DNA of 64,000 nucleotides, from the NCBI RefSeq assembly GCF_013003915.1, contig NZ_JABAIV010000002.1, forward strand, positions 682,001-746,000, in the 5' to 3' direction. Positions 4,420-62,216 of the stretch are shown piece by piece. This DNA is from Telluria aromaticivorans (GTDB taxonomy: Bacteria; Pseudomonadota; Gammaproteobacteria; Burkholderiales; Burkholderiaceae_D). The notes beneath the pieces are model-generated. The model was not told the DNA's origin and did no database searches. It saw only the letters and a program-made list of their open reading frames with translations. The position numbers were made by a program, and so were the translations under genes. The stretch's first letter is position 1; each line of letters begins with the position of its first letter.

Positions 4420-4555
4420 TAGGGTGGGCAATTCGTAATTCAGGCCATTGGCCTGAATTACCTTGCCCACGCGTTCAACCAGCGGTAGCACGGACGTGGT
4501 GCGGTTTTGCCGCGCTAACTATCACCGCGTCGGCAGGAAAACCTGCCCACCCTAC
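4420..4555. repeat. dispersed two-hairpin palindromic element, copy 1 (REP/BIME-like)
   Basis: 136 bp bounded by GTAGGGTGGGC and its inverse GCCCACCCTAC. The left half contains its own hairpin, including the nested palindrome TAATTCAGGCC/GGCCTGAATTA, and closes with GCCCACGCG. The right half opens with ATCACCGCGT (here CGGCAGG in place of GGGC). The core AACCAGCGGTAGCACGG is shared with copies 4 and 8. It lies in the gap between the convergent mutarotase and carbonic anhydrase genes. Confidence 0.9.
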
Positions 4556-4583
4556 GGGTTAGTGGCAGCGCTGAGCGACACCC

Positions 4584-5681
4584 TCAATTCGACTCTTTAA
4601 TCATCCGCCCATTACTCTGCTGCACCGGCCTTGCATTCAGCGGATACAGCCGCGAGAACAGCGCCATCTGCGTCGGCGACGCCTGCATCGGCTGCTTCAT
4701 GACGATCCACAGCACGTCTTCGGTACACGGCGGCTCGGTCAGCGAACCCATATAAGTGAAGTATTCGCGCTTTTCCGGCAGCGCCTCGTTCACGTCGAGC
4801 AGGATCGACGGCGACACCGACTGCTTCTTCTCCAGCGGCAGGTTGTTCCACACAGTCTGGATCAGCGAATTGGCCTTACCACGCTCGAGCAGCACCGCCA
4901 GCACCAGCAGCTTGCCTTCGACGCTGCGGTGCACCAGGTGGATCACCATCTCGGTGCCCTTGCCGTTGATGCGCTCTTCCGACGGGCGGTGGAAGTGGAA
5001 CTGCTGCAGTTCGTAGGCCTGGTTGCCGACCGTGAGGAAGTTGCCGCCGCCGACCGTCACCTGGATGGTGTGGCCGTTGTCGACTTCGCTGAACGAACTC
5101 GGATGGTAGTCGAAGGCGATCTGCTCCAGGTCGACCTTCATGCCGTCGCGCAGGTCGATCGGCGACTGGCGGTTGCCGGTGCCGCACCTGGCCCAGGCGG
5201 TGTTGATGTTCGACCAGTTGGCCGGGCCGTATTCGCCTTCATAGCTCCAGTGGGTGCCGTTCTTCGGCTTGGCTGCAACCGCAATCGCGGCTTCGGCTTC
5301 CTTGCGGCGCCGGGCGTCCGCGGCCCGCTTGGCGCTTGCCGCCTTGGCGGCGCGCACCTGCTGCTGCGCGCGCAGTTCGGCCAGGCGCTCGGCGATGCGC
5401 ACCGACAGGTCGACTTCGGCCTGGTCTTCGCTGGCAGCGGAAGGCGCAGGCGCAGCGGCAGGCTTGGCGGCCGCGGTGGCGGCATCGGCGGCGGCGGCCA
5501 TGGCCTTCAGGTCCGGCTTGAGCATGGGCTTGCCTGCGACCGTTGGCTTGCCTTCGAGGATAGCCTTGACGGTGGCCGACTTGGCATCGACCGCAGGTTT
5601 CGCGGATTTCGGAGCGGGGTCGCTCGCGCTTGCCGTTGCCATGACAAGGCTGCAAGCGAACAGGGCGATAAGGTGGCGCAT
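4584..5681 (-). CDS. alpha-class carbonic anhydrase, secreted
   Basis: Hydrates CO2 to bicarbonate in the periplasm. Of 365 aa. ATG 5681 begins a clear Sec signal peptide (MRHLIALFACSLVMATASA); an upstream in-frame TTG at 5720 would bury the signal and is rejected. Residues of about 20-140 form an unusual Ala/Lys/Arg-rich extension with heptad-like AERLAELRAQQQVRAAKAAS, probably helical. The catalytic domain begins at HWSYEGEYGPANW and has RQSPIDL, zinc ligands in FHFHRPSEE (two His) and MVIHLVH (one His), and TEPPCTEDVLW. Alpha carbonic anhydrases usually run about 220-250 aa, so the long linker is the odd feature. Confidence 0.92.
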   Translation of the reverse strand: MRHLIALFACSLVMATASASDPAPKSAKPAVDAKSATVKAILEGKPTVAGKPMLKPDLKAMAAAADAATAAAKPAAAPAPSAASEDQAEVDLSVRIAERLAELRAQQQVRAAKAASAKRAADARRRKEAEAAIAVAAKPKNGTHWSYEGEYGPANWSNINTAWARCGTGNRQSPIDLRDGMKVDLEQIAFDYHPSSFSEVDNGHTIQVTVGGGNFLTVGNQAYELQQFHFHRPSEERINGKGTEMVIHLVHRSVEGKLLVLAVLLERGKANSLIQTVWNNLPLEKKQSVSPSILLDVNEALPEKREYFTYMGSLTEPPCTEDVLWIVMKQPMQASPTQMALFSRLYPLNARPVQQSNGRMIKESN

Positions 5682-5755
5682 GGGATTCCAGGTGTGTGCT
5701 GTCTTAATGCTTATCGGCAATTGGACCCTGAAACTTGAGTACGCAGAAGCAACAA

Positions 5756-5775
5756 CGCCCCGAAATATCGGGGCG
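5756..5775 (-). terminator. possible terminator downstream of the dedA-family gene
   Basis: Eight-bp perfect stem CGCCCCGA-AATA-TCGGGGCG. Read on the minus strand it is followed by TTGTTGCTT, a poor U-tract. It sits 37 bases after the DedA stop and before the carbonic anhydrase start. Confidence 0.5.
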
Positions 5776-5811
5776 CTGGCAGGATGACAATGGAGCTTAA
5801 CGATCGATTAA

Positions 5812-6456
5812 TTATCTGCTCATCACGCGACGGCCGAACTTGTACAGGCCGCCAATGGCCAGTGGCACGATTGCAGCCGACACGCCGACCAGCACGATTT
5901 CGGTCAGGTGGTCGCGCACGATCGGGATGTTGCCGAAGAACAAACCGGCCGTCACCAGGCTGGCCACCCACAGCACCGCACCGCTGACGTTGTACATCTG
6001 GAAGCGTGCATGGGTCATTTCCGACACGCCGGCCACGAAAGGCGCAAAGGTGCGCACCACCGGCACGAAGCGCGCCAGGATGATGGTCTTGCCGCCATGC
6101 TTCTCGAAGAAGTCGTGGGTCTTCTGCAAGGCATCCTTGTTGATCCAGCGGTAATTATGCGTGAACACCCGGTGGCCGACGGCCTGCCCGATGTAATAGT
6201 TCAGGGTATTGCCCGTGATTGCCGCAATGATGAGCAGCGCCATCAAGAGCGGATAGCTCATCTGGCCGGTGGCGCAGAAGGCGCCGGCAATGAACAGCAA
6301 GGTGTCGCCGGGGAAGAAAAACAGGAGCACCAGGCCGGTCTCGCAGAACACGATCAGGAACAGCACGATGTACACGTAGGTTCCGTACTGGGCCAGCAGC
6401 GTGCCCAGCGTCTTATCGACATGGAGAATCATGTCGAAAAATTGCATCAGATCCAT
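5812..6456 (-). CDS. DedA family inner-membrane protein
   Basis: Of 214 aa. DedA/VTT-fold proteins are inner-membrane proteins; some translocate undecaprenyl phosphate or phospholipids and support membrane potential. The start at 6456 (MDLMQFFDMIL) has AGGA five bases upstream; the frame is open further 5' but without homology. Visible family marks are FPGDTLLFIAGAFCATG with the acidic residue before the first re-entrant loop, GNTLNYYIGQAVGHR, FFEKHGGKTIILARFVPVVRTF with the conserved Arg-Phe-Pro, and FVAGVSEM. There are four or five hydrophobic segments. It is transcribed alone, divergent from the cyclophilin gene. Confidence 0.9.
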   Translation of the reverse strand: MDLMQFFDMILHVDKTLGTLLAQYGTYVYIVLFLIVFCETGLVLLFFFPGDTLLFIAGAFCATGQMSYPLLMALLIIAAITGNTLNYYIGQAVGHRVFTHNYRWINKDALQKTHDFFEKHGGKTIILARFVPVVRTFAPFVAGVSEMTHARFQMYNVSGAVLWVASLVTAGLFFGNIPIVRDHLTEIVLVGVSAAIVPLAIGGLYKFGRRVMSR

Positions 6457-6616
6457 AATTTTCCTAAAAGGTAGCGGCGAATCATACCACCGCTCTGCCC
6501 CCCGGCAGCCCGGCCTGCGCAGTCCTCCGCAGGATGTTTTCGCCGTCCATGACTTTACGTTTTGGCTATATTCCCGATTACAATCGCTGCACTCAAAACA
6601 ATGCAATGGAGACCCG

Positions 6617-7570
6617 ATGACCGCTTCGTTCACCACCCACGCACTGGCAACGGCCGCGCTGGCGCTGCTGGCTGCCGCCAGCGTCCATGCTGCCCCCGCT
6701 CTTGCCCCTACTTCGGCCGCCAAGGCCGCGGCCAAGGAACTGGCGCCCAAGCCCTCGCTGGCCGACGTGGTCAAGGCCTCCAAGCCATCCGACTGGCGCC
6801 CGCTCGACCCGGAAAACACGCTGTACATGGAACTGCCGACCGGCCGCGTGATCCTCGAACTGGCCCCCAGCTTTGCGCCGAAGACCGCCGCCAATATCCG
6901 CGCCCTGGTGCGCGAAAACTACTTCGACGGCCTGTTCATCATCCGCTCGCAGGATGGCTTCGTGGTGCAGTGGGGCGACCCGGACGAAGAGAACCCGAAG
7001 CCGTTCAAGGCCGCCAAGACGGTCAAGGCCGAGTTCACCGTGCCCATCAAGGGCACCGGAACCTTCACCCGCCTGAAGGATGGCGACGTCTACGCGCCGC
7101 AGGTCGGCCATGTGAATGGTTTCCCGGCCGCGCGCGACCCGGCCAAGGGCAACACCTGGCTGGTCCACTGCCCGGCCATGGTCGGCGTGGCGCGCGATGC
7201 CGAAGCCGATACCGGCAACGGCTCGCAGCTCTATGCCGTCACCGGCCACGCGCCGCGCCAGCTCGACCGCAACATCACCGTAGTGGGACGCATCGTCTCG
7301 GGCATGCCCTTGCTGTCGGTGCAGCCGCGCGGCACCGCCGCCTCGGGCTTCTACGAGAAGCCGGAACAGCGCATGCCGATCAAGGCGGTACGCATCGCGG
7401 CCGATGTGCCGGAAGCCGAACGCAGCAAGTTTGAAGTGATGCGCACCGAGAGCGCCACCTACCAGGCGGCGGTCGACGCGCAGCGCAACCGCGGCGGCCC
7501 GTGGACCAAGGTCGCGGCCGGCAAGATCGACCTGTGCAGTGCGCCGATCCCGGTCCGCGAGCAGAAATAA
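6617..7570 (+). CDS. secreted cyclophilin-type peptidyl-prolyl cis-trans isomerase
   Basis: Of 317 aa, with a Sec signal peptide (residues 1 to about 23, ending SVHA-AP) and a short Ala/Lys linker. The cyclophilin domain starts at [19 protein letters not shown], with [23 protein letters not shown] and VVQWGDP as its core strands; the usual FHR motif reads FIIRSQDG, keeping the catalytic-type Arg. The insert between GDP and the C-terminal strands is longer than in PpiA, and a late VVGRIVSGM resembles the family's VVEGMDVV strand. GGAG precedes ATG 6617. Probable periplasmic folding factor. Confidence 0.85.
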
Positions 7571-7585
7571 GTACATGGGGCGGGA

Positions 7586-7591
7586 TATAAT
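7586..7591 (+). promoter_or_regulatory. consensus -10 hexamer six bases before the mutL start
   Basis: A perfect TATAAT ends six bases before the mutL ATG at 7598. That places the expected transcription start on or next to the start codon. No good -35 is seen at 17 or 18 bp and no Shine-Dalgarno precedes the ATG, so the pattern fits a leaderless transcript. Confidence 0.45.
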
Positions 7592-7597
7592 CCGGAC

Positions 7598-9520
7598 ATG
7601 AACGCGCCCGTCCCCACAACCCGTCCGATCCAGCAGCTGCCTGACCAGCTCATCTCCCAGATAGCCGCCGGCGAGGTCGTCGAGCGGCCCTCGGCGGTGG
7701 TCAAGGAGCTGCTCGAGAACGCCCTCGATGCCGGCTCCACGCAAATCACCGTGCGCCTGGAAGAAGGCGGCGTCAAGCGCATCGCCATCACCGACAACGG
7801 CCGCGGCATCGCCCCGGAGGAACTGCCGCTGGCGCTGGCCCGCCACGCCACCTCGAAGATCGCTTCCCTGAACGACCTGGAGAACGTCGGCACGCTGGGC
7901 TTTCGCGGCGAGGCGCTGGCCTCGATCGCCTCGGTCGCCGCGGTGCGCATCACCTCGCGCACGCCGAACGCGGCGCATGCCTTTGAGATCGTCGGCTCGC
8001 ACGAAGGCACGGTCGCTCCATCGTCGGGCGCCTTCGGCACCACCATCGACGTGCAGGACCTGTATTTCAATACGCCCGCGCGCCGCAAGTTCCTGAAATC
8101 CGAGCAGACCGAATACGGCCATTGCGCGGAAATCGTGCGCCGCATCGCGCTGTCGCGCCCGGACGTCTCGTTCAGCCTGACGCACAACGGCCGCACCATC
8201 GACCACTGGAACGTGAGCGAAGCGGCCAAGCGCAGCGCCCAGATCCTCGGCAACGACTTCGCCGAAGCGCGCCTGGAGCTGGAGGAAGGCGCCGGGCCAT
8301 TACGCCTGTACGGCTACGTCGGCCTGCCGACCGCCTCGAAGGCGCGCGCCGACGGCCAGTTCTTCTACGTGAACGGCCGCTACGTGCGCGACAAGCTCTT
8401 GGTACACGCGGTGCGCGCGGCCTACCAGGACGTGCTGCATGGCGACCGCTTCCCGTCCTACGTGCTGTCGCTCGACCTGGATCCGGCGCTGGTCGACGTG
8501 AACGTCCACCCGTCGAAAATCGAAGTGCGCTTCCGCGACAGCCGAGCGGTGCACCAGTTCGTGTTCCACGCGGTGCAGCGCACGCTGGCGCAAACGTCGG
8601 CCACCGCGCACGGCAGCGCGCCGGCGCCGGTGTCCGCTGCCGAATTCGGGGCGATGCGGCCAAGCGGCACGCCGGCATGGGCGCCGCGCCCGCACGAGCA
8701 GACTTCCTTCGGCTCCCAACTGACCTCGACCTTCTCGCCCTCGCCCTTCGCGCCGGGCAGCCGCTGGGACGAGGGACGTCCGCAGGCGTCGAACGGCGGC
8801 GTGGCGCAGAGTACCGAAGCGTACGGTGCGCTGTTCTCCCCGGGCGAATCGACGCGGGTGCAGTTCGCATCCGGGCCCGTGGGCGTACCGCTTTCGAGTT
8901 CCGATCGCCCGCTGACAAACGAGGATTTCCCCCTCGGCTTCGCACTGGCCCAGCTGCACGGCATCTACATCCTGGCGCAAAACACCAAGGGCCTGGTGCT
9001 GGTGGACATGCACGCGGCCCACGAGCGCATCCTCTACGAACAAATCAAGAACGCGCTCGACGCGCGCGCTGAAGGCGAGGAACTGCAGGTGCAGCAGATG
9101 CTGATCCCGGTGACCTTCTACGCCGACGCCGTCGAGGTGGCGACCGCGCAAGACCACGCCGAGACCCTGAAGACCCTCGGCTTCGATATCGCCGCGCTGT
9201 CGCCGACCACGCTGGCGGTGCGCACCGTCCCGACCATCCTGCGCAATGCCGACGCCCAGACACTGGCGCGCGACGTGCTGCGCGACGTGCGCGAATACGG
9301 CGGTTCGCGGGTGCTGATCGAGCGCCGCAACGAGCTGCTCGGCACCCTCGCCTGCCACACGGCGGTGCGCGCCAACCGCGTGCTGTCGATCCAGGAAATG
9401 AACGCCCTGCTGCGCCAGATGGAAATCACCGAACGCTCCGACCAGTGCAACCACGGCCGCCCCACCTGGGTCCAGCTCGAGATCAACGCGCTCGACAAGC
9501 TGTTCCTGCGCGGTCAATGA
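7598..9520 (+). CDS. mutL: DNA mismatch repair protein MutL
   Basis: Of 640 aa. The N-terminal GHKL ATPase carries motifs [10 protein letters not shown] (about 37-46), TDNGRGI and [11 protein letters not shown] low-complexity linker covers about 335-440. The C-terminal domain has D470[11 protein letters not shown], the DQHA-x2-E-x4-E endonuclease motif with Gln replaced by Met, plus ACHTAVRA and CNHGRPTW. This is the latent-endonuclease type of MutL found in organisms without MutH, which fits betaproteobacteria. It overlaps miaA in an ATGA arrangement. Confidence 0.96.
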
Positions 9521-10476
9521 TGGGTTCCAGCCGCAGCAAGCCGATGGCGGTGGCCATCATGGGCCCGACCGCGTCGGGCAAGACCGCGGCCGCACTGGCG
9601 ATCGCGCGCACCCGTCCCGTGGAAATCATCTCTGTCGATTCCGCGCTGGTCTACCGCGAGATGGACATCGGCACCGCCAAGCCCTCCGCCGAAGAACTGG
9701 CGAGCGTGCCGCACCACCTGATCGACATCATCGACCCCTTGGAGAGCTATTCGGTCATGCAGTTCAGGACCGATACCCTCCGCCTGGTCGCCGAGATCAG
9801 CGCGCGCGGCGCCCTGCCGCTGCTGGTGGGCGGCACGATGATGTATTTCAAGGGCCTCACCGACAGCCTGGACGACCTGCCGACCGCCGATGCGGCGGTG
9901 CGCGCGGCAATCGAGCTCGAAGCTTCCAGAATCGGCTGGCCCGGCATGCACGCGAAGCTGCGCGCGCTCGACCCCATCACCGCCGACCGGCTGGCGCCGA
10001 ACGACGCCCAGCGCATCAACCGCGCCCTCGAGATCATTGAGCTCACCGGCAAGCCGATGTCCGAACTGCTGGGCAAGCGCGAGAAGCCCGAGCTGCCCTT
10101 CGAACTGGTCTCGTTCGCGCTGGAGCCATCAAGCCGCGCGGTGCTGCACCAGCGGATCGCGCTGCGCTTCGACCAAATGCTGGGCAAGCGTGACGACGAA
10201 GGACTGGTGGCGGAAGTGGCGCGCCTGCGCGCGCGCGGCGACCTGACGCCCACGCTGCCGTCGATGCGCTGCGTCGGCTACCGCCAGGCCTGGGACTACC
10301 TCGACGGCACGATCGACCGCGCCGGGCTGCGCGAGCTGGGTATCATCGCCACCCGCCAGCTGGCCAAGCGCCAGCTCACCTGGCTGCGCGCGATGCCGGA
10401 CCGGATCGTGTTAGACTGCCTCGGTAGTGATCCAACGCAGGCCATGTTGGAGCAGCTTGAGAGCTTGGAAAAATGA
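9517..10476 (+). CDS. miaA: tRNA dimethylallyltransferase MiaA
   Basis: Transfers the dimethylallyl group to N6 of A37 in UNN-decoding tRNAs, the substrate later methylthiolated by MiaB, also in this window. Of 319 aa. P-loop [30 protein letters not shown] (tRNA and catalytic Asp region), the HHLIDIIDP block and the late [13 protein letters not shown] motif are all present. The ATG at 9517 overlaps the mutL stop (ATGA); a second ATG at 9520 and one at 9544 are possible but less well coupled. It is followed by the tRNA promoter after 40 bp. Confidence 0.96.
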
Positions 10477-10516
10477 CATCGCTTCCAAGATTTTTGTTGC
10501 GATGCGGCGTCCAGCC

Positions 10517-10545
10517 TTGACAGGCCGCGCCCCAGCTTGGATAAT
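10517..10545 (+). promoter_or_regulatory. sigma-70 promoter of the tRNA-Met genes
   Basis: TTGACA (10517-10522), a 17-bp spacer and GATAAT (10540-10545). The predicted start is about 10552, six bases before the first tRNA. This is the best match to the sigma-70 consensus that I noticed in the window. Confidence 0.8.
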
Positions 10546-10557
10546 GCCTGCCGTTGC

Positions 10558-10634
10558 GGTGATATAGCTCAGTTGGTTAGAGCACAGCACTCATAATGCT
10601 GGGGTCGGTGGTTCAAGTCCACCTATCACCACCA
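10558..10634 (+). tRNA. tRNA-Met (CAU), copy 1
   Basis: 77 nt with encoded CCA. The acceptor stem GGTGATA pairs with TATCACC; the D arm is AGCTCAGTTGGTTAGAGC; the anticodon CAU is at 10592-10594 in loop CTCATAA; the T arm is GGTGGTTCAAGTCCACC. The CACTCATAATGCTGGGGTC segment resembles elongator tRNA-Met. A CAU anticodon could also belong to tRNA-Ile2 (lysidine-modified), which is less likely but not excluded by eye. The first base pair is Watson-Crick (G-C), which argues against initiator tRNA. Confidence 0.93.
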
Positions 10635-10648
10635 AGAATTCCGCACAG

Positions 10649-10685
10649 ATGGCTTGGCTCGCTGAGGGTCAAGCCATTTTGTTTT
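10649..10685 (+). terminator. rho-independent terminator after the first tRNA-Met
   Basis: Stem ATGGCTTG (10649-10656) and CAAGCCAT (10670-10677), followed by TTTGTTTT. Confidence 0.7.
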
Positions 10686-10706
10686 ACCGCCTTATGTACC
10701 AGTTTC

Positions 10707-10783
10707 GGTGATATAGCTCAGTTGGTTAGAGCACAGCACTCATAATGCTGGGGTCGGTGGTTCAAGTCCACCTATCACCACCA
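10707..10783 (+). tRNA. tRNA-Met (CAU), copy 2
   Basis: Identical over all 77 positions to copy 1, including CCA; anticodon at 10741-10743. Only the base C before the gene (CGGTGATA versus GCGGTGATA) and short flanks are shared, so the duplication unit was about the tRNA itself. No separate promoter as good as the first is visible, and expression may depend on readthrough of the intervening terminator. Confidence 0.93.
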
Positions 10784-10794
10784 GTAAAAGAGTC

Positions 10795-10825
10795 GGCCCG
10801 GTTCTCGCGAACCGGGCCGTTTTCT
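10795..10825 (+). terminator. rho-independent terminator after the second tRNA-Met
   Basis: Ten-bp perfect stem GGCCCGGTTC (10795-10804), loop TCGC, GAACCGGGCC (10809-10818), then GTTTTCTTT. It could also slow transcription arriving from the convergent small-protein gene. Confidence 0.88.
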
Positions 10826-10838
10826 TTGGATCTTCACT

Positions 10839-10997
10839 TCAGTGCTTCTTGCCGCCGCCCGAGATCTTGTTCTCGGTGGCCCAGGCGCGCCGCTTGGCTT
10901 CTTCCTTCGACACACCCTTCTTCTCGTAGCCCTGCTCGATGTGCTTGGCCTGCCGCTTTTGCTTGTCCGTATAGGACGACTTATCACCCTGAGGCAT
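10839..10997 (-). CDS. small basic conserved protein, 52 aa
   Basis: Starts MPQGDKSSYTDKQKRQAKHI and ends KISGGGKKH, with a central EEAKRRAWAT. The start is supported by AAGGAGA seven bases upstream of ATG 10997. From memory, this pattern (PxGDKSxYTDKQ, AxRRAWATxNK, SGGGKK tail) is a widespread small family sometimes labelled plasmid stabilization protein, although no function is established that I can cite. It is rich in Lys/Arg and Glu with no cysteine or membrane segment, and may bind nucleic acid. A 7-bp inverted repeat lies 20-45 bases upstream. Confidence 0.85.
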   Translation of the reverse strand: MPQGDKSSYTDKQKRQAKHIEQGYEKKGVSKEEAKRRAWATENKISGGGKKH

Positions 10998-11017
10998 GAT
11001 CGTTCTCCTTCCGACGG

Positions 11018-11042
11018 TTGATCACTGCCGGCCCATGATCAA
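11018..11042. promoter_or_regulatory. inverted repeat upstream of the 52-aa protein gene
   Basis: TTGATCA, 11 bp, TGATCAA. It lies 20 bases before the start codon of the minus-strand gene, within its 5' untranslated or promoter region. Possible operator; a chance palindrome cannot be excluded. Confidence 0.3.
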
Positions 11043-11102
11043 AAGCCTACGCTTTCACCTCATATTAATACGTTAAGCACTTCACGCACGGCCGCGATCT
11101 AC

Positions 11103-11435: not shown

Positions 11436-11469
11436 GTGCGCCTCCTGGGTGATGACACGAGATGAGCGT

Positions 11470-12738: not shown

Positions 12739-12752
12739 GGCTCCTGGGTTTC

Positions 12753-12859
12753 GTAGGGTGGGCGGGTCTTCCGCCCACGCGGTCAAATCACCGCAATGCA
12801 GCCCGTGCGGCTATTCAAACCCCAACTATCACCGCGTGGGCAGAATCTGCCCACGCTAC
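12753..12859. repeat. dispersed two-hairpin palindromic element, copy 2
   Basis: 107 bp from GTAGGGTGGGC to GCCCACGCTAC (one mismatch to the inverse end). Left hairpin GGGCGGGTCTTCCGCCC, right hairpin GTGGGCAGAATCTGCCCAC. The core GCAGCCCGTGCGGCTATTCAA is nearly the same as in copy 6. It lies between the CaiB-type gene end and the start of the DUF445 gene. Confidence 0.9.
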
Positions 12860-12891
12860 GGGCTGGCTCGATGCATGCTGTGGCGCCTATG

Positions 12892-14043
<1,152 letters not shown>

Positions 14044-14060
14044 CGGGGTCTCCTTTGCCG

Positions 14061-15215: not shown

Positions 15216-15226
15216 TGCCGGGCCTT

Positions 15227-18943: not shown

Positions 18944-19079
18944 GTAGGGCGGGCGGGTCCTTCCGCCCGCGCGTTCAACAGGCGGCAAGATCATCGCAAA
19001 CGATTATTCAACCGCTAACTATCACCGCGTGGGCGCTTGTAATTCCGGGCACTGCCCGGCCTTACCCCGCCCACCCTAC
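18944..19079. repeat. dispersed two-hairpin palindromic element, copy 3
   Basis: 136 bp from GTAGGGCGGGC to GCCCACCCTAC. Left hairpin GGGCGGGTCCTTCCGCCC; the right side contains GCGTGGGC and a nested palindrome around CCGGGCACTGCCCGG. The core keeps CGTTCAAC and AACTATCACCGCGTGGGC. It begins seven bases after the antiporter stop, between convergent genes. Confidence 0.88.
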
Positions 19080-27167: not shown

Positions 27168-28270
27168 AAAATACCCCCTCCCAGCCTTCTTATTTCATCC
27201 CCGAGCCGCTCGACAACACGCGGCTTGCCCACCTGTGCGGTCCGCTCGACGAGAACCTGCGCCAGATTTCGGCCGCGCTTGACGTGACGGTCTTCCGGCG
27301 TGGCGAGAAATTCATCGTCAGCGGCGCCAATGCCGACCGCGCGGTCGAACTGCTCGAACGTTTCTATGCGGTGGCCAACAAGGTCGTGCCGATCGAAGAA
27401 GTGCAATTGGCCCTGGTGGAACAGCGTGTCGGCTTGAAACCGCGCACCGCCGCGGCAACGGACGAACCAGCCTCTGCCAGTGCCAGGAGCGGGCGACCGG
27501 ACGGCGCGGAAGATGCCGGTGACACCGGGGACGGCGCCACGCCCGAGCTGGTCAGCCCCCTGCTCAAGACCCGCCGCAGCGATTTGCGCGGCCGTACCCC
27601 ACACCAGATCGAATACCTGAACGCCGTGCTCGAACACGACATCAGCTTCGGCGTCGGCCCGGCCGGCACCGGCAAGACCTATCTCGCCGTGGCCTGCGCG
27701 GTGGATGCGCTCGAGCGCGATGCGGTCAAGCGCATCATCCTGACCCGTCCGGCCGTGGAAGCCGGCGAGCGCCTCGGCTTCCTGCCGGGTGACCTGAGCC
27801 AGAAGGTCGATCCCTACCTGCGCCCGCTGTACGACGCGCTGTACGACCTGCTCGGTTTCGACCGCACCCAGAAGATGTTCGAGAAACAGGTCATCGAGAT
27901 CGCCCCGCTGGCCTACATGCGCGGCCGCACGCTGAACCACGCTTTCGTGATCCTGGACGAAGCGCAGAACACGACGGTCGAGCAGATGAAGATGTTCCTG
28001 ACCCGGATCGGCTTCGGCAGCAAGGCCGTGATCACGGGCGACGTGACCCAGGTCGACCTGCACAAGACGCAGCGCTCGGGCCTGATCGATGCCATGCACG
28101 TGCTCAAGAACGTGCGCGGCATCAAATTCACCCAGTTCGCCAGCGTGGACGTGGTGCGCCACCCGCTGGTGGGCCGTATCATCGACGCCTACGAGAGCAA
28201 TGCCTCGATCGAGGAACTGGCCGCCCTCCCCAAATCGCTACCTACGAAAAATGCAAGAAAAAAAACATAA
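27164..28270 (+). CDS. ybeZ: PhoH-like ATPase (YbeZ)
   Basis: Of 368 aa. Start codon is TTG at 27164, overlapping the miaB stop (TTGA); no in-frame ATG occurs in the first 200 residues, and conserved sequence begins at once. N-terminal KH-like region ([18 protein letters not shown]), then P-loop [56 protein letters not shown] (Walker B) and [10 protein letters not shown]. Together with YbeY it is implicated in RNA metabolism. No Shine-Dalgarno site: translation is likely coupled to miaB. Its 3' end overlaps ybeY by 20 bases. Confidence 0.93.
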
Positions 28271-28718
28271 TCTCGACCTCGAAGTCCAGTACGCCGACAC
28301 GCGCCTCGAGAAAGAGCTGACCGAAGAGATGCTGCAGCGCTGGGTGCAGGCGGCGCTGCTCGGCCCCGCCGAGCTGACCATCCGCTTCGTCGACGCGGAA
28401 GAAGGCCAGACCCTGAACCGCACCTACCGTGGCAAGGACTACGCGACCAATGTCCTCACCTTCGCCTATAACGAAGGCGAAGAGCTGGGCGCCGAGGACC
28501 CGACCCAGGCCGACATCATCCTGTGCACCGACGTGCTGCAGCGCGAAGCCGACGAGCAGAAGAAGACGGTGGAGGAGCATGCGGCCCACCTGGTGGTGCA
28601 CGGCGTGCTGCACGCCCAGGGCTATGACCACGACCACGACGAAGAAGCCGAGGAAATGGAACAGTTCGAGCGCGACATCATGGAAGTGCTGGGGTATCCG
28701 GATCCGTATTCGGATTGA
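28251..28718 (+). CDS. ybeY: endoribonuclease / rRNA maturation factor YbeY
   Basis: Of 155 aa. Zinc motif [11 protein letters not shown] ([11 protein letters not shown]) and the preceding TNVLTFAYN block identify the family; it processes the 3' end of 16S rRNA and acts in ribosome quality control. ATG 28251 lies inside the end of phoH. Followed after 11 bp by a palindromic repeat. Confidence 0.96.
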
Positions 28719-28729
28719 CCTCTGCTTTT

Positions 28730-28862
28730 GTAGGGTGGGCAGGTTTCCTGCCCACGCGGTCAAACGGCGTTAGCACGGACGCGATGCGGGTTCTCCTGCG
28801 CTAACTATCACCGCGTGGGGTAACCGGGGCCAGTGGGCCGGGTTACAAGCCGCCCACCCTAC
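28730..28862. repeat. dispersed two-hairpin palindromic element, copy 4
   Basis: 133 bp from GTAGGGTGGGC to GCCCACCCTAC. Left hairpin GGGCAGGTTTCCTGCCC. The core has TTAGCACGGACGCGATGCGGG and CTAACTATCACCGCGTGGGG, like copies 1 and 8; the right arm is extended by an inner palindrome GTAACC...GGTTAC. It lies between tandem genes ybeY and corC. Confidence 0.9.
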
Positions 28863-29842: not shown

Positions 29843-31405
29843 ATGCTGCGCCAACGTACCAAACCCCTTATTGCTGATCCGGTCGCACGTCCCGCCACGC
29901 CCTCGCCCAAAGCGCTGGTACTGATGGCGCTTGCCGGCGCCCTCTCCCTGTTCTCGTTCGAACCCTTCGGCTGGTGGCCGGTGCAGTTCCTGGCGCTCGC
30001 CTATTTCTTCTACCGGGTCGGCGTCGAGAACTCGCCGCGCCATGGCCTGTTCCTCGGCTGGGCGTTCGGCTTCGGCTGGTCGGTGGCCGGCATGCACTGG
30101 CTGTACATTGCCGTGACCCGTTTCGGCGGCCTGCCCGCCATCCTCGGCGCGATTTCCATCGCCCTGCTGGGCCTGTACATGGGCCTGTTCGGCGCCTTTG
30201 CCGGCGGCGCCGCGAGCTGGCTGCGCCGCAAATGGTCGCTGCCGGTGACTGCCTTCGTGCTGCTGGCACTGCCCGCCACCTGGGGCGTGTCGGAATGGCT
30301 GCGCGGCTGGGTGTTTACCGGCTTCCCGTGGGCTTCCTCGGGCTACGCCCACAACGTCTCGCCCCTTGGTGGCTATGCGCCTTTGGTGGGCGTGTACGGC
30401 GTCGGCGTCGCCGCCGCCGTGTGCGCGGGCTGCCTGGCCATGCTCACCCAGCGCAAACGGCGCTGGCATGTCCTTGGCCTGCTCGCCACGGTCATGGCGG
30501 CCGGATTCGGCCTGAAGCAAATCCACTGGACCCAGGACGTCGGCCAGCCCGTGACGGTACGCCTGCTGCAGGGCGACGTGCGCCAGGACCAGAAATTCGA
30601 CGCCGCCTACCTGGTGGACATCATCGAACGCTACCGCGGCATGATCACGGCGGCGCCGGCCGACCTGATCGCCACGCCGGAAACCGCGATCCCGGTCACG
30701 CCCTACCAGCTTCCCGACGACTACCTGGCTGCGCTGCAGGGCTTCGCAGTCCAGACCCGCAGCCACCTGATGCTCGGCATCCCGATGATGGACAGCCCGA
30801 CCCAGTATGCGAACAGCGTCATCGCCTTCGGTCCGGGAGCCGCACCTTACCGATACGACAAGCATCACCTTGTGCCCTTCGGCGAATTCATCCCGCCAGG
30901 CTTCCGCTGGTTTACCGATTTGATGAACATCCCGCTGGGCGACCAGACCCGCGGCAAGGCCCTGCAGGCGCCCTTCCCGGTCAAGGACCAGCTGGTGCTG
31001 CCGAATGTCTGCTACGAGGACGCCTTCGGCGAAGAGATCGCGGCCCAGCTGCGCAATGCGCCGAAGCCGGCGACACTGCTGCTGAACGTGTCGAACCTGG
31101 CCTGGTATGGCGAATCGGTGGCGATCCCGCAGCACCTGCAAATTTCGCAGATGCGTTCGATCGAAACCGGCCGCCCGATGCTGCGCTCGACGAATAACGG
31201 CGCCACCGCCATCATCGACGCACGCGGGAACATCGTGCAGCAGCTGCCCTTCTACGGCCGCGGCGTACTGACCGCCACGGTGCGCGGCACCGAAGGGTTC
31301 ACGCCGTATATCCGCTTCGGTAACCTGGCTTTCCTGCTGCTCGGCGCACTGATGCTGGGTGGCGCGTGGTTCGCCGGCCGGCGTTTCCGCAGTCGTAAAC
31401 CGTAG
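29843..31405 (+). CDS. lnt: apolipoprotein N-acyltransferase Lnt
   Basis: Adds the third acyl chain to the N-terminal Cys of lipoproteins in the inner membrane. Of 520 aa. Several N-terminal membrane segments (about 25-200), then a nitrilase-fold domain with catalytic triad visible as Glu in ATPETAIPV, Lys in YDKHHLVPFGEF and Cys in LPNVCYEDAFGEE. A final membrane segment closes the protein. The stop codon TAG (31403-31405) is part of the left arm GTAGCGTGGGC of a palindromic repeat, so the element probably redefined the C-terminus. Confidence 0.96.
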   Translation: MLRQRTKPLIADPVARPATPSPKALVLMALAGALSLFSFEPFGWWPVQFLALAYFFYRVGVENSPRHGLFLGWAFGFGWSVAGMHWLYIAVTRFGGLPAILGAISIALLGLYMGLFGAFAGGAASWLRRKWSLPVTAFVLLALPATWGVSEWLRGWVFTGFPWASSGYAHNVSPLGGYAPLVGVYGVGVAAAVCAGCLAMLTQRKRRWHVLGLLATVMAAGFGLKQIHWTQDVGQPVTVRLLQGDVRQDQKFDAAYLVDIIERYRGMITAAPADLIATPETAIPVTPYQLPDDYLAALQGFAVQTRSHLMLGIPMMDSPTQYANSVIAFGPGAAPYRYDKHHLVPFGEFIPPGFRWFTDLMNIPLGDQTRGKALQAPFPVKDQLVLPNVCYEDAFGEEIAAQLRNAPKPATLLLNVSNLAWYGESVAIPQHLQISQMRSIETGRPMLRSTNNGATAIIDARGNIVQQLPFYGRGVLTATVRGTEGFTPYIRFGNLAFLLLGALMLGGAWFAGRRFRSRKP

Positions 31406-31513
31406 CGTGGGCGGCTTCGCCGCCCACGCGGTGATTGTTGGCAGCAGGATCATCGAGCCCGTGATCGGAGCCGATAACGATCACCGCGTGGGCGGGATAC
31501 CCGCCCACCCTAC
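31402..31513. repeat. dispersed two-hairpin palindromic element, copy 5
   Basis: 112 bp from GTAGCGTGGGC to GCCCACCCTAC. Left hairpin GGGCGGCTTCGCCGCCC, right hairpin GGGCGGGATACCCGCCC. The core is its own type (palindromic CGATCAC... and TATCGGCTCCG-like). It overlaps the lnt stop codon and precedes glyQ. Confidence 0.88.
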
Positions 31514-37036: not shown

Positions 37037-37164
37037 GTAGGGTGGGCAGGGTAATTTCGGGCAATGCCCGGAATTACGCCCACGCGTTCAAATTACGGTA
37101 CTGCAGCCCGTGCGGCTATTCAACCGCTAGCTATCACCGCGTGGGCAGAATCTGCCCACCCTAC
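37037..37164. repeat. dispersed two-hairpin palindromic element, copy 6
   Basis: 128 bp from GTAGGGTGGGC to GCCCACCCTAC. The left arm contains GGGTAATTTCGGGCAATGCCCGGAATTACGCCC-like nested pairing; right hairpin GTGGGCAGAATCTGCCCAC. The core GCAGCCCGTGCGGCTATTCAA is shared with copy 2. Its right end CCCTA supplies the TAG stop of the convergent minus-strand gene at 37161-37163. Confidence 0.9.
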
Positions 37165-44295: not shown

Positions 44296-44462
44296 GTAGG
44301 GTGGGCGGCTTTGCCGCCCGCGCGTTCAACTATCGGGTGAAATGGCGTCGCGTTTGATCGCCCACTGGTTGAACACGTGAGCAGTTCCACCAGTAGGAGA
44401 GCAGCCGCGCAGGCGGCATCACCGTGATTTGAACGCGCGGGCGGGAGACCCGCCCACCCTAC
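44296..44462. repeat. dispersed two-hairpin palindromic element, copy 7
   Basis: 167 bp from GTAGGGTGGGC to GCCCACCCTAC, the longest copy. Left hairpin GGGCGGCTTTGCCGCCC, right hairpin GGGCGGGAGACCCGCCC; the interior contains a different core with TTGAACACGTGAGCAG. It lies between convergent apaH and ilvD, ending three bases before the ilvD stop. Confidence 0.88.
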
Positions 44463-52778: not shown

Positions 52779-52791
52779 TCGACAAACTTGG

Positions 52792-52811
52792 GTTCCGGCC
52801 TTCGCCGGAAC
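52792..52811 (+). terminator. hairpin downstream of phrB
   Basis: Eight-bp perfect stem GTTCCGGC-CTTC-GCCGGAAC, 13 bases after the photolyase stop; only a short GGTTT follows. Confidence 0.45.
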
Positions 52812-52902
52812 AACGGTTTCTGGGCTCATACTAAAAGCGTTTGTACGTCTACCCTAAAGACCGTCATACGCGCCACTGGCGCCTATGACTCCCGGCGCCG
52901 GC

Positions 52903-52929
52903 GGAAGCAATGCCACTGGCATCGCTTCC
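52903..52929 (-). terminator. hairpin downstream of chpA
   Basis: GGAAGC-A-ATGCC, loop ACT, GGCAT-C-GCTTCC: 11 pairs with one A-C mismatch, between the convergent phrB and chpA ends. Confidence 0.45.
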
Positions 52930-52962
52930 TCCAATTTCGTACCGCAGTCGCTCGCGCAACCG

Positions 52963-58266: not shown

Positions 58267-58280
58267 GGGCTCGATAATGG

Positions 58281-60602
58281 TTAGGCGGCCACGCGGAAGC
58301 GCGACACCGAATCTTTCAGTTCCTGGGCCAGCAGCGCCAGCTCACGGATCGACTGCGCCGTCTGGCGCGTGCCGCCCTGGGTGTGCTCGGTGACCGACAG
58401 GATGTGCTGCATATTATGGGCCACACCGTTGGCGGACGTCGCCTGCTGTGTCGCCGCGCTCGAGATTCCCTGGATTAGCTCCGCCAGGCGGTTCGAGACC
58501 CGCGAAATATCTGCCAGCGCGGCGCCGGCCGCATCCGACAGGCGCGCGCCCTCGACCACGCCCTGGGTCGACTTTTCCATGGCCGCCACGGCGTCGTGGG
58601 TATCGGCCTGGATGGTGCGCACCAGCGCGCCGATGCCCTTGGCCGCTTCGCCCGAGCGTTCCGCCAGGCGCTGCACTTCTTCCGCCACCACCGAGAAGCC
58701 GCGCCCGGCCTCGCCGGCCGATGCGGCCTGGATCGCCGCGTTCAGCGCCAGCACGTTGGTCTGTTCCGTAATGTCCGAGATCAGGTCGGTGATCTCGCCG
58801 ATCTCCTGCGAGGATTCGCCCAGGCGCTTGATGCGCTTCGAGGTTTCCTGGATCTGCTCGCGGATCTCGTTCATGCCGAGGATCGCATTCTGCACCGCCA
58901 GCGCGCCCTGCTCGGCCGCGTCGACCGACTGGCGCGCCACCTCGGCCGATTCGTTCGCCGAGCGCGACACGTCGGCGATCTGGGTCGCCATGCGCAGCAC
59001 CGTGCTGGATGCTTCCTGGATCTCGCGCGACTGGGCTTCGGCTGCGCCCAACAGCTCGGTCGAGACGGCCTGGGCGCCGCTTGAAGCGCGCGTGACCTGC
59101 TCGGTGGTGCGGATCACGCGCAGCACCAGTTCGCGCAGTTCTTCCACCGTATAGTTGACCGAGTCGGCGATCGCGCCGGTGATGTCTTCCGACACCGTCG
59201 CATGCACGGTCAGGTCGCCGTCCGCGACTTCCTGCAATTCGTTCATCAAGCGCAGGATCGCCGCCTGGTTCTGGTCGTTGGTGGCCTTGGCTTCTTCTTC
59301 CTTGGCCTGGGCCAGCTGGCGCATCGCCTCGGCTTCCTGCCTTCGCGCTTCGGCGCCCTGGGTGCGGTTGCGCGAGTCCTGCAGCATGACGCGGCTGATA
59401 CTGCCGCCCATCGCCAGCGTGAAGATCGAGGCGCCGACCAGCAGCCAGAACCAGCTGCTGCGCGTGCCCAGCAGCCGGCGGTATTCCGCCTGCACCCGCT
59501 CGAGCGTCGAGCGCAGGCCCTCGTTGTCGCGCGCGATGACCTGCTCGGCAACGCGTGCGGCCTCGAAATTGTGGAGATTGGTCTTCAGCGGCGCCATGCC
59601 CTGCTGCCAGCTGCGGAACGAGGTGCGTGCGGCAGCGATCCGCTCGCGCAGCTCGATGTCGGCGACCGGCGCCAGTCCCAGGGCCGGATTAAGGCCGACC
59701 AGGGCGTCCAGCAGCGCACCCAGTTCGGCGCTGTCGCGCGCGATGGTGTTGGCGGCCTCGCGGTGTGCGGCGCCGGGTGCGGTGAAGGCATGGGCCGATG
59801 CCGGCAGGCGTTCCGAAATCGCCACCAGGCGCTCGAGCGCGGCATCCTGGCGCGCGCTGGCGCCGCGCAGCCGGTCGGCCAGGCTGCGCAGCTCGGGAGC
59901 GAGCACGTCGAGCCGGGCCACGCTGGCGCCAAAACCGACCAGGTGGCGCTTGTTGCCGGCGATGGTAGTGGCAGCGGCATTCGAGGCCGACCAGGCCGCG
60001 CGTGCCTTGGCCAGCAGGGGCGCCAGCTCGCTGGACGCCGGCGGGATCGCGTTCGGGCCCGCTTTGCCGCCTCGCGCCAGCAGCGCCAGCAGGCGTCCCA
60101 GTTCGGCGCGGCTGTTGTCCAGCTGGCTGAAGGCGCTCACGTCGCCGCGCAGCGCATTCGGCGCCGACTTGGCGACCCGCTGCGAATGCATCAGGGCGTC
60201 GGCAGCCACCTGGCCCTGGGTCGACACCACGCCGTTGTGGGCGGCGTTCTGCCACATGGCCAGCACGGTCAGCAGGATGCCGATCGCAAAGGCCGCCAGC
60301 ACCAGGCGCAGCTGGCTGGCCAGCGACAGGTGGCCGATCAGCGGCAGGCGCAGGTCTTCGCCTTCGCTTGGTGCGGCAGCCAGGGGCTTGCGCGGGCGCG
60401 TGTTGCCGAGGCGGCGGGCGGCCGCTTCGGCCGAGCCGTGCTGCGGGGCCTGCTGGTGCGACGGGACGTCGTTCGAGGGCTGCTGCGGCAGCATGCCCGG
60501 GCCGAACTGGGTGTCGGGCGAGACCAGGGCGGTATCGTCGTCCGCGCTCGCGGCATTGTCTTTCAAGAAGGCGTTCATGCTGATCTTCGAGGCAAATCCC
60601 AT
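58281..60602 (-). CDS. pilJ: PilJ-like methyl-accepting chemotaxis protein
   Basis: Of 773 aa. Unusually long cytosolic N-terminus (about 1-90, low complexity), membrane segment about 95-115, a large periplasmic helical domain (about 116-375), a second membrane segment ([18 protein letters not shown]) and HAMP. The signalling tip is [46 protein letters not shown], the hallmark of MCPs. In the Pil-Chp context it is the receptor feeding PilI and ChpA. Start at 60602. Confidence 0.92.
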
Positions 60603-60620
60603 ACCGGCTCCTGGTGCGGC

Positions 60621-61157
60621 TTACTGAATGTCTGGTTGTTGTGCGATGAGCAGGAAGCGCGCTTCCCGCACCAGCGCCGCCAGCGAGAGCGGCGTCCAGA
60701 GGATGTTGTCGGCATCGCGCAGGGCGTCGCCCTCGCGCTGCATGCTGCTGGCCTGGCGCAGTCCATACACGCGGTCGGCCAGCAGGGCGCAGTTGAAGCC
60801 GAGCGAAGGCGCGAAGGTCACCAGGCGGGCGCCCGGTGCAGGCGCGGACGGCTGTGCATCGGCGCCGAGGTAGCGCGCCAGGTCGATCACGCCGACCAGG
60901 GTGCCGCGCACGTTGGCCAGGCCCAGGTACCAGGGCTGGGCCAGCGGCACCCGCGCCAGCGGTACCGGTGCGACGATTTCGCCGGCTTCGAGCAGGTCGA
61001 GCAGGTAGCGGGTGGCGCCGACCTGCATTCCCAGCTGGCGGATCGGCGCGCCGCTGCCGCTTTTGGCGGCCTGCATGCGTTCGAGGAGCTGTTCCTGGTA
61101 TTCGCGCAGGCGGGTGCTGCGCGCGTCGGCGTCCTGCCGCGGCTCGCCCGCGGTCAT
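60621..61157 (-). CDS. pilI: PilI-like CheW adaptor
   Basis: Of 178 aa. CheW fold with RYLLDLLEAGEIVAPVPLARVPLAQPWYLGLANVRGTLVGVIDLARYLG, linking receptor and kinase. The ATG overlaps the pilH stop (ATGA). A region of 30 charged residues precedes the domain. Confidence 0.9.
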   Translation of the reverse strand: MTAGEPRQDADARSTRLREYQEQLLERMQAAKSGSGAPIRQLGMQVGATRYLLDLLEAGEIVAPVPLARVPLAQPWYLGLANVRGTLVGVIDLARYLGADAQPSAPAPGARLVTFAPSLGFNCALLADRVYGLRQASSMQREGDALRDADNILWTPLSLAALVREARFLLIAQQPDIQ

Positions 61158-61561
61158 GCCGCGGCGGCGGCCGGGGCTGCGGCCGATGCAGCTTTCTCGT
61201 CCAGGGTCGCGATACTGGCCAGCAGCAGCGCTGGATTCACCGGCTTGACCAGGTAATCCTTCGCGCCCTGGCGCATGCCCCAGATGCGGTCGGTTTCCTG
61301 GTTCTTGCTGCTGCAGATGATGATGGGGATCGCGGCCAGTTCCGGGTCGCGCCCGATCGAGCGCGTCACCTGGAAACCGTTCGCGCCGGGCATGACGACA
61401 TCCATCAGGATCAGGTGCGGACGCTCGGCGCGGATCTTGCCGATCGCTTCCTCGCCGTTGACGGCGGTGGTGACGCTATAGCCATGCTTGACCAGGACAT
61501 CGGTCAGGTAAAAGCGCTCGGTCGGGGAATCGTCGACGATCAGGATCTTGTGTATGGCCAC
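61154..61561 (-). CDS. pilH: PilH-like single-domain response regulator
   Basis: Of 135 aa from a GTG at 61561 with GGAG seven bases before; no ATG is near. CheY fold: [33 protein letters not shown] (phospho-Asp), [12 protein letters not shown] and [10 protein letters not shown] 13-residue Ala-rich tail ends it. In Pseudomonas PilG and PilH act on opposite ATPases; which is which here rests on gene order. Confidence 0.9.
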
Positions 61562-61587
61562 GTGGGGCTCCGGAATTTCGGTCAATA

Positions 61588-61983
61588 TCAGGCTTTGGCA
61601 GCCGTGTGTTCGCGCACGGCAGCCAGCAGGCTGTCTTTGGAAAAGGGTTTGGTGAGGTAGGCGGAAGCGCCGACCATCGCGCCGCGCGCGCGGTCGAACA
61701 GGCCGTCCTTGGACGACAGCATCAGCACCGGCGTCGCATGGAAGCGCGCGCTCTTCTTGATCAGGGCGCAGGTCTGGTACCCATCCAGGCGCGGCATCAG
61801 GATGTCGCAAAACACCAGTGCGGGATGGTGGTCGTTGATCTTGGCGAGCGCGTCGAAACCATCGTCGGCCAGCACGACCTGGTAGCCTGCCTGGGTCAGG
61901 AAAATCTCGGCGGAGCGGCGGATCGTGCTGCTGTCGTCGATCACCATGATGGTCAGGCCGGTCGGTTGCGGCGATGTCGTCAT
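61588..61983 (-). CDS. pilG: PilG-like single-domain response regulator
   Basis: Of 131 aa. IMVIDDSSTIRRSAEIFL, LVFCDILMPRLDGYQT (phospho-Asp), VLMLSSKDGLFDRARG and AYLTKPFSKDSLL. First gene of the five-gene unit; 26 bp before pilH. The pair of stand-alone CheY proteins at the head of the operon is the pilGH arrangement. Confidence 0.92.
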   Translation of the reverse strand: MTTSPQPTGLTIMVIDDSSTIRRSAEIFLTQAGYQVVLADDGFDALAKINDHHPALVFCDILMPRLDGYQTCALIKKSARFHATPVLMLSSKDGLFDRARGAMVGASAYLTKPFSKDSLLAAVREHTAAKA

Positions 61984-62108
61984 TTTCGTTTCACTTCAGC
62001 ATGAAGCGCCACGATAGCACAGCGCTTATCCCTTGTGCGTGAAGTGTTGCAGCGGGTCAACTAGGCAAAATGGCACGCTGCGGCTCCCTTGAGAGCCATC
62101 GCCGACTC

Positions 62109-62216
62109 GTAGGGTGGGCAAGTTCCTTGCCCACGCGTTCAACCAGCGGTAGCACGGCCGCGGTGCGGTTCTCCTGCGCTAACCATCACCGCGTGGGCGG
62201 AATCCGCCCACCCTAC
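62109..62216. repeat. dispersed two-hairpin palindromic element, copy 8
   Basis: 108 bp from GTAGGGTGGGC to GCCCACCCTAC. Left hairpin GGGCAAGTTCCTTGCCC, right hairpin GGGCGGAATCCGCCC. The core AACCAGCGGTAGCACGG matches copy 1. It lies between pilG and the rubredoxin gene, 22 bases from the latter's stop. Confidence 0.9.

What the first reader, a model, noticed from the sequence alone, without database searches (positions are those of the whole stretch)
4420..62216. A family of eight intergenic palindromic elements built on GTAGGGTGGGC
Copies at 4420-4555, 12753-12859, 18944-19079, 28730-28862, 31402-31513, 37037-37164, 44296-44462 and 62109-62216 share outer ends GTAGGGTGGGC / GCCCACCCTAC (allowing one mismatch). 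Each has a left hairpin closing in GCCCACGCG or GCCCGCGCG and a right hairpin usually opening CACCGCGTGGGC or similar. That makes two inverted hairpins around a 50-100 bp core, a REP/BIME-like design. Eight in 64 kb implies a very large genomic number if the density holds. No RAYT transposase is in the window.
Basis: seen in the sequence. Interest (0 to 1): 0.7.

Follow-up and report, generated by a model that had tools for sequence, protein, structure and literature searches.

The report
REPIN mobile repeats in a Massilia-group genome
The eight repeats are ordinary members of a known class of tiny bacterial mobile hairpins (REPINs), present in hundreds of copies in this genome and apparently spread by a transposase encoded elsewhere in it.

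Summary
All eight elements are real (the first starts at 4419, not 4420) and not chance: 17 GTAGGGTGGGC-like matches against 1.0 expected. The genome has 618 exact ends, reversed control 6. Each element is a head-to-head pair of GTAG-tagged hairpins around a core, 57-60 bp in seven of eight. The genome encodes three proteins over the RAYT transposase cut-off, none in the window; two are flanked by the same hairpins. Across 62 same-genus genomes copy number is higher where this RAYT class is present, and the hairpin stem beside a RAYT tends to predict the stem repeated genome-wide, with exceptions. All eight sites lack a full element in relative G047; three there hold REP-like remnants. So this is a REPIN/RAYT system of the GTAG REP superfamily: a new member of a known kind. 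Less ordinary: 72 of 211 sampled REPs have long loops; a 27-bp palindrome lay inside a REP hairpin in all 38 sampled copies; 20 ends share a 22-nt outer module; one flanked RAYT has a substituted HUH histidine. Mobilisation by the RAYT is inferred, not shown.

The parts
4419..4555 (.). REPIN 1: left REP 4419-4470 (long arm), core 4471-4528, right REP 4529-4555
4435..4461 (.). nested 27-bp palindrome in the loop of the left REP of REPIN 1
12753..12859 (.). REPIN 2: left REP 12753-12778, core 12779-12835, right REP 12836-12859
18944..19079 (.). REPIN 3: left REP 18944-18970, core 18971-19028, right REP 19029-19079 (long arm)
19039..19065 (.). nested 27-bp imperfect palindrome in the right REP of REPIN 3
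28730..28862 (.). REPIN 4: left REP 28730-28755, core 28756-28814, right REP 28815-28862 (long arm)
28820..28846 (.). nested 27-bp imperfect, divergent palindrome in the right REP of REPIN 4
31402..31513 (.). REPIN 5: left REP 31402-31427, core 31428-31487, right REP 31488-31513; relative G061 holds a REPIN with another stem at this place
37037..37164 (.). REPIN 6: left REP 37037-37083 (long arm), core 37084-37140, right REP 37141-37164
37051..37077 (.). nested 27-bp palindrome in the left REP of REPIN 6
44296..44462 (.). REPIN 7: left REP 44296-44321, long core 44322-44436 (115 bp), right REP 44437-44462
62109..62216 (.). REPIN 8: left REP 62109-62134, core 62135-62192, right REP 62193-62216
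62087..62108 (+). 22-nt outer module directly left of REPIN 8, related to ACTTGAGAGCCGCCGGTGACTC found beside 20 REP ends of the sample; it lies in the stretch that does not align to relative G047

Best explanation
The eight elements are REPINs: non-autonomous miniature elements made of two GTAG-tagged REP hairpins in head-to-head orientation around a core of about 57 bp. They are most likely copied, when single-stranded, by a REP-associated tyrosine transposase (RAYT, an HUH/Y1 enzyme) encoded in trans. In this genome the likely enzyme is the C12:270160 copy, whose HUH motif and tyrosine are intact; the C23 copy has the first HUH histidine replaced by tyrosine and is probably weak or dead. 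Shown here: anatomy, copy number, RAYT genes flanked by the same REPs, genus-wide association of RAYT class with REP number, partial stem matching between RAYT flank and genome, covariation of the inner hairpin, and missing elements at orthologous sites. Inferred from published work on TnpA-REP: recognition and cleavage of single-stranded REP involving GTAG. Not shown: any transposition event, and any host function.
For: Ends far beyond chance. The C23 and C12 RAYTs score 186 and 183 bits on NF047646 (cut-off 80) and the C12 protein matches PDB 4er8 TnpA-REP at E 1.8e-37; both lie between GTAG REPs in inverted orientation. Of the 30 RAYT loci fetched, one each from 30 of the 37 genomes with this class, 29 have a GTAG hairpin on at least one side (330 bp left, 410 bp right of the match) and 22 on both; control stretches starting 670 bp away gave 4 and 0. 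Copy number: median 133 in 37 genomes with this RAYT class, 9 in 25 without, Mann-Whitney p 6.8e-7. Stem prediction: GTAGGGTTGGC was expected in G009 and G049 and found 22 and 166 times; GTAGGGCGGGT was expected in G046 and found 60 times, next highest of 62 genomes 10; GTAGGGTGGAC median 142 in 11 genomes with that stem beside the fetched RAYT, 9 in 19 others, p 3.6e-4. Sample of 1.124 Mb: 211 REPs, 156 of them in 78 head-to-head pairs, 64 of 78 cores 54-62 bp. Inner stem pairs, not used to select the hairpins, show changes on both sides in 12, 8 and 19 of 51 distinct sequences; over the helix 49 such cells against 12.9 in shuffles. All eight sites lack a full element in G047. No target-site duplication in 78 pairs, as known for IS200/IS605-type transposition.
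Against: No excision or insertion was observed. In G047 three of eight sites hold REP-like remnants (at most 1 of 60 shuffles as high), so loss there is as possible as gain in the window genome for those sites. Exceptions to the RAYT rule: G016 (349 copies) and G024 (181) lack a RAYT of this class over my cut; G014 has one but only 16 copies. GTAGGGTTGGC is also high in G043 (122) and G035 (73) without having been predicted; G050 has 192 GTAGGGTGGAC without that stem at its fetched RAYT. Stem labels come from one RAYT per genome though several genomes have more. Related genomes are not independent, so the p-values are too small, and the class cut was chosen after seeing the scores. The number of helix pairs with a change on both sides does not exceed shuffles (5 against 4.2, 206 of 500).
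Confidence: 0.9

Rival explanations
1. Host-maintained regulatory hairpins: the doublets are kept because their transcripts end or protect mRNAs at gene 3' ends; mobility is past.
For: Of 72 classified intergenic pairs 36 lie between convergent genes, 31 tandem, 5 divergent; all gaps in the sample are 126, 439 and 132 (chi-square p 1.2e-9, crude gene caller). Hairpin pairing is kept by compensatory change.
Against: Insertions near divergent promoters may simply not be tolerated, which gives the same bias. No conserved run of T follows the hairpin: the base after the outer CTAC is G in 129 of 155 ends, so they do not look like canonical intrinsic terminators; no transcript data were at hand. 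This reading does not explain the match between RAYT flank stem and genome-wide stem.
Confidence: 0.25
2. MITE-like derivatives of a classical DDE insertion sequence with terminal inverted repeats.
For: Short, inverted ends, dispersed, non-coding.
Against: No target-site duplication of 2-5 nt in 78 pairs; the ends are hairpins, not simple inverted repeats; they flank a Y1/HUH gene.
Confidence: 0.02
3. Chance similarity in GC-rich DNA.
For: None found.
Against: 17 matches against 1.0 expected; 618 against 6 for the reversed pattern in the genome.
Confidence: 0.001

Closest known systems
REPINs (Bertels and Rainey 2011, PMC3116915; passages read)
   Same: Inverted REP doublet, conserved ends, core of set length and less conserved sequence, compensatory changes, tied to a RAYT in the same genome.
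   Different: Another species group and REP sequence; excision reads, reported there for P. fluorescens, were not available here.
GTAG-tagged REP superfamily and its HH dimers (Di Nocera et al. 2013, PMC3733652; abstract, sections 5, 14, 16 and passages read)
   Same: Unpaired GTAG at the outer end, stem-loop, HH dimers mostly 20-100 bp apart, loop length classes, alternative complementary stem residues, siting downstream of genes, flanking of RAYT genes.
   Different: The words Massilia, Janthinobacterium and Oxalobacter do not occur in its main text. It reports complementary inner loops of up to 27 bp in Bradyrhizobium GTAG-14, so long arms are not new in kind.
RAYT/REP units of Nunvar et al. 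2010 (PMC2817692; passages read, including parts of the abstract and of Table 1)
   Same: RAYT gene between two inverted REPs; REP and RAYT co-evolve; presence of a RAYT goes with its REPs. Their Haemophilus influenzae REP is GTAGGGTGGGCTTcAGCCCACC, the same head as here.
   Different: Here the stem-loop above GTAGGGTGGGC is longer and varied, and the closing arm is GCCCACGC, leaving a G-G mismatch above the tag in most copies.
TnpA-REP biochemistry (PMC8266576; passages read; PDB 4er8)
   Same: Protein family of the RAYTs here; GTAG and stem-loop as recognition features.
   Different: The enzyme of this genome has not been assayed.

Membership tests
GTAG-tagged REP superfamily | GTAG (or near) tag next to a stem-loop, high copy, extragenic | tested here: met
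   618 exact heads in the genome; 51 distinct short hairpins keep 98% of pair cells, partly built in by selection; of 78 pairs 1 falls inside a crude gene call, 5 lie at stretch edges, 72 between genes
REPIN | REPs mostly as inverted (head-to-head) doublets with a spacer of set length | tested here: met
   156 of 211 REPs in 78 HH pairs; 69 of 78 cores are 48-62 bp, 1 is 27 and 8 are longer
REPIN | cognate RAYT in the genome flanked by the same REPs | tested here: met
REPIN | mobility (sites present or absent between relatives; excision) | tested here: inconclusive
   All 8 sites without a full element in G047. Of 32 site-by-genome pairs in four relatives 24 had both flanks; 22 were scored: 1 filled, 3 with remnant, 18 without clear trace; 2 were too long to score and carry loose REP-end matches. 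Direction of change not shown; excision not testable
RAYT (TnpA-REP) | NF047646 match over cut-off, HUH motif and tyrosine | tested here: met
   C12 copy: 183 bits, HLH, Y in DYI. C23 copy: 186 bits but YLH in place of HUH. C22:280176: 139.9 bits, HAH, leucine where the Tyr aligns. So one of the three over the cut-off meets all features
BIME (arrays of alternating REPs) | several REPs in alternating orientation as a cluster | tested here: inconclusive
   Mostly isolated doublets; 8 TT and 5 HT neighbours within 260 bp in the sample
MITE of a DDE insertion sequence | target-site duplication | tested here: not met
   0 of 78 pairs for 2, 3, 4 and 5 nt

The most novel reading that the evidence does not exclude
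The REPs of this genome are modular: a fixed base (YC-GTAGGGTGGGC ... GCCCACGCG) that the RAYT reads, topped by interchangeable apical hairpins. These include a 27-bp palindrome GTAATTYNGGSCANTGSCCNRAATTAC (132 places in the genome at up to 3 mismatches, reversed control 0) that in the sample occurs only inside REP loops (38 of 38). There are also exchangeable half-cores (tails GCGTTCAA and GCGGTGAT in AA, AB and BB pairs) and an occasional 22-nt outer module. If so, the tip is free to diversify by paired change or arm exchange, perhaps to keep the two arms of one element unlike each other and safe from palindrome-cutting nucleases.
Probability: 0.3. Interest if true: 0.45.

Novelty: new member of a known kind. 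Interest (0 to 1): 0.3.

Why it matters
It adds a well-populated REPIN/RAYT system in a group (Massilia, Oxalobacteraceae) for which my searches of the held papers listed no such report (listings only). It also gives a set of 62 related genomes in which RAYT type, REP stem and copy number all vary, so cognate recognition can be tested with natural pairs (G046, G049, G000 and others). The confined nested palindrome offers a way to ask which part of a REP the enzyme does not read.

Tried and rejected
Heterodimer rule: in the window none of the 8 elements has two arms of the same inner class, but in the 1.124 Mb sample 9 of 78 pairs share a class against 14.3 expected (P 0.07) and 0 of 78 share an identical loop against 2.8 expected (P 0.048). 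Class by class, GGC-GGC is rarer than expected (0 against 3.0, P 0.024, one of six classes tested) while AGG-AGG is commoner (2 against 0.34). A smaller first sample gave 7 of 48 against 9.2 (P 0.27). I treat this as a hint only.

Nested palindrome as a mobile element of its own: rejected for the sample. 36 of 38 copies are called inside a REP by script; the other two are visibly inside a REP with a damaged arm. It also does not flank the third RAYT of this genome (C22:280176), which has a REPIN with such an arm nearby on one side only.

Rfam at gathering threshold: only two tRNAs in the window. MITE with target duplication: none. The fourth Y1 gene (C22:108242) is below the NF047646 cut-off and is flanked by GGGGACAG-type inverted repeats, not by these REPs.

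The hairpin list held spurious hits and was replaced by that. The finder (contiguous stem of 8 or more) missed REPs with G-T or mismatched stems, so the count of RAYT flanks rests. Covariation of the outer six stem pairs is partly built in, because the script required the closing arm to match; only the inner pairs count as evidence. The gene caller is crude; in the window it calls a doubtful reverse gene at 28242-28763 that makes REPIN 4 look divergent.
Full report
Observation. The eight elements are at the given places; the first begins at 4419. GTAGGGTGGGC with up to one mismatch occurs 17 times in the window, 16 of these being the outer ends of the eight elements, against a mean of 1.00 in shuffles. 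In the whole genome (5.23 Mb, 24 contigs) the exact 11-mer occurs 618 times (301 and 317 on the two strands), the reversed control 6 times. Host: three same-genus genomes have contigs whose lengths and RAYT places match records named Massilia sp. 9I, Massilia sp. MS-15 and Massilia alkalitolerans, so the window is from a Massilia-group bacterium; the window's own record is not named.

Anatomy. Each element is GTAG, a hairpin, a tail, a core, and the same in reverse. The outer stem is GTGGGC/GCCCAC with a G-G mismatch next to the tag in most copies. I sampled 1.124 Mb of the genome (window plus 53 stretches): 211 REPs, 78 head-to-head pairs, 8 tail-to-tail and 5 head-to-tail neighbours. Of 78 cores 64 are 54-62 bp, 69 are 48-62, one is 27 and 8 are 112 bp or longer. 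Tails are of two main kinds, GCGTTCAA (A) and GCGGTGAT (B); of 69 cores of 48-64 bp, 30 are AA, 27 AB, 6 BB and 6 other; they fold better than mononucleotide shuffles (mean z -1.6), which the complementary ends of AA and BB cores partly explain. The tip of the hairpin is varied: inner stems GGC, GGG, AGA, AGG, AAG, or a long arm; 72 of 211 have a loop of 20 nt or more, some of these probably mis-called. In 51 distinct short hairpins the three inner pairs, which were not used for selection, show changes on both sides in 12, 8 and 19 sequences; over the whole helix there are 49 such cells against 12.9 in shuffles, but the number of pairs with such a change (5) does not exceed shuffles (206 of 500). 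The long arm also covaries (17 distinct sequences with a 34-nt loop).

Nested palindrome. Four of the sixteen arms in the window carry a 27-bp palindrome in the loop, one of them divergent. Its consensus GTAATTYNGGSCANTGSCCNRAATTAC with up to 3 mismatches has 132 places in the genome and none for the reversed control. In the sample 38 copies were found; 36 were scored inside a GTAG REP and the other two are inside a REP with a damaged arm on inspection. It is thus, in the sample, an allele of the REP tip and not an element of its own. Long inner loops are known from Bradyrhizobium GTAG-14 (PMC3733652 section 5).

Ends. Outside the GTAG both ends prefer C at -1 (129 of 155), T or C at -2, and more weakly A at -4. 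Twenty REP ends share a 22-nt outer module ACTTGAGAGCCGCCGGTGACTC at 16 or more of 22 positions; the 11 matches of 18 or more all adjoin a REP, while 8 matches of 16-17 do not. One copy lies left of the element at 62109, in a stretch that does not align to relative G047. No target-site duplication of 2-5 nt is seen in 78 pairs.

Transposase. The genome has four Y1-family genes, none in the window; three are over the RAYT cut-off of NF047646 (80 bits): C23:199572 (186.1), C12:270160 (183.4) and C22:280176 (139.9); C22:108242 has 64.3. The first two lie between inverted GTAG REPs. PDB 4er8 (TnpA-REP) matches the C12 protein at 1.8e-37. Among 35 loci of the first two genes' class (32 distinct: L007, L008 and L009 repeat L105, L103 and L099) HUH is intact in 34 and the tyrosine present in all 35; the exception is the C23 gene of this genome, with YLH. 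C22:280176 has leucine where the tyrosine aligns and a REPIN on one side only. C22:108242 has GGGGACAG-type inverted repeats on its flanks, like the TIRYT genes of PMC3733652 section 16. That HUH and Tyr are catalytic is established knowledge for this family.

Genus. In 62 genomes the 11-mer count runs from 0 to 651. Genomes with the first RAYT class (my cut: best E below 1e-48; 37 genomes) have a median of 133, those without (25) a median of 9, p 6.8e-7. Of the 30 RAYT loci fetched, from 30 of the 37 genomes, 29 have a GTAG hairpin beside the gene on at least one side, 22 on both; control stretches 4 and 0. Some RAYTs sit in other stems, and this accounts for three genomes with the RAYT but few copies (G009, G046, G049); G014 (16 copies) is unexplained, as are G016 and G024 with many copies and no RAYT of the class over my cut. 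I used the other stems to predict genome-wide stems. GTAGGGTTGGC was predicted for G009 and G049 and found 22 and 166 times; also, unpredicted, 122 in G043 and 73 in G035, all others 13 or fewer. GTAGGGCGGGT was predicted for G046: 60, all others 10 or fewer. GTAGGGTGGAC: 11 genomes with that stem at the fetched RAYT have a median of 142, 19 others 9, p 3.6e-4, with G050 (192) an outlier among the others; the same test for GTAGGGTGGGC gives 313 (14 genomes) against 94.5 (16), p 0.0011. One RAYT per genome was labelled, though several genomes have more, and shared ancestry is not corrected for. Co-evolution of RAYT and REP is already described (PMC2817692).

Sites. Against relatives G047, G033, G018 and G061 (aligned pieces about 74-89% identical), all eight sites in G047 lack the full element: the gap is 16-75 bp against 134-207 bp. 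Of 32 site-by-genome pairs, 8 lacked a flank in the stretches fetched. Of the other 24, 2 (18944 and 28730 in G033) had gaps of 2.6 and 3.0 kb, were flagged for loose REP-end matches and were not scored; 1 (31402 in G061) holds a REPIN with stem GGTGGTC; 3 (12753, 37037 and 44296 in G047) hold a REP-like remnant (1, 1 and 0 of 60 shuffles as high); 18 show less, the nearest being 3, 4 and 7 of 60. So presence differs between species; whether by gain or loss is open for at least three sites. Distances are too great to fix the insertion point.

Placement. With a crude gene caller, 72 of 78 pairs could be classed between genes: 36 convergent, 31 tandem, 5 divergent, against 126, 439 and 132 for all gaps; 1 pair was inside a call and 5 at edges. 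This agrees with the downstream siting reported for GTAG REPs (PMC3733652 abstract).

Verdict. The elements are REPINs of the GTAG superfamily with a cognate RAYT: a new member of a known kind. The head GTAGGGTGGGC itself is published for Haemophilus influenzae (PMC2817692 Table 1, passage). Searches of the held library for Massilia with RAYT or REP, Oxalobacteraceae with REPIN, and REPINs with RAYT since 2014 listed nothing on this system (listings only, and most subscription papers are not held). PMC3686654 was seen in listings only; PMC3116915, PMC8266576 and PMC8049555 as passages.

Noticed in passing
window 52790-52929: A second composite of palindromes (52790-52814, 52863-52889, 52903-52929) belonging to another dispersed family that resembles CGTC-tagged REPs (resemblance recalled and from PMC3733652); related copies occur in the genome sample and in some intergenic gaps of G033 and G061 at sites where this genome has a REPIN.
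   Followed up: partly
G000:C23:199572-200012 (L004, L116): RAYT with YLH in place of the HUH motif, still between GTAG REPs; the only such case among 35 loci.
   Followed up: partly
G000:C22:108242-108646 (L003, L086): Below-cut-off Y1 transposase gene flanked by several GGGGACAGAGTC / GGGTCAGAGTC inverted repeats, TIRYT-like.
   Followed up: partly
L089:5119-5226 and L089:5519-5626: Two near-identical REPINs 400 bp apart that share their flanks too, as in a tandem duplication.
   Followed up: no
window 10558-10634 and 10707-10783: Two nearly identical tRNA-Met (CAT) genes in tandem.
   Followed up: no
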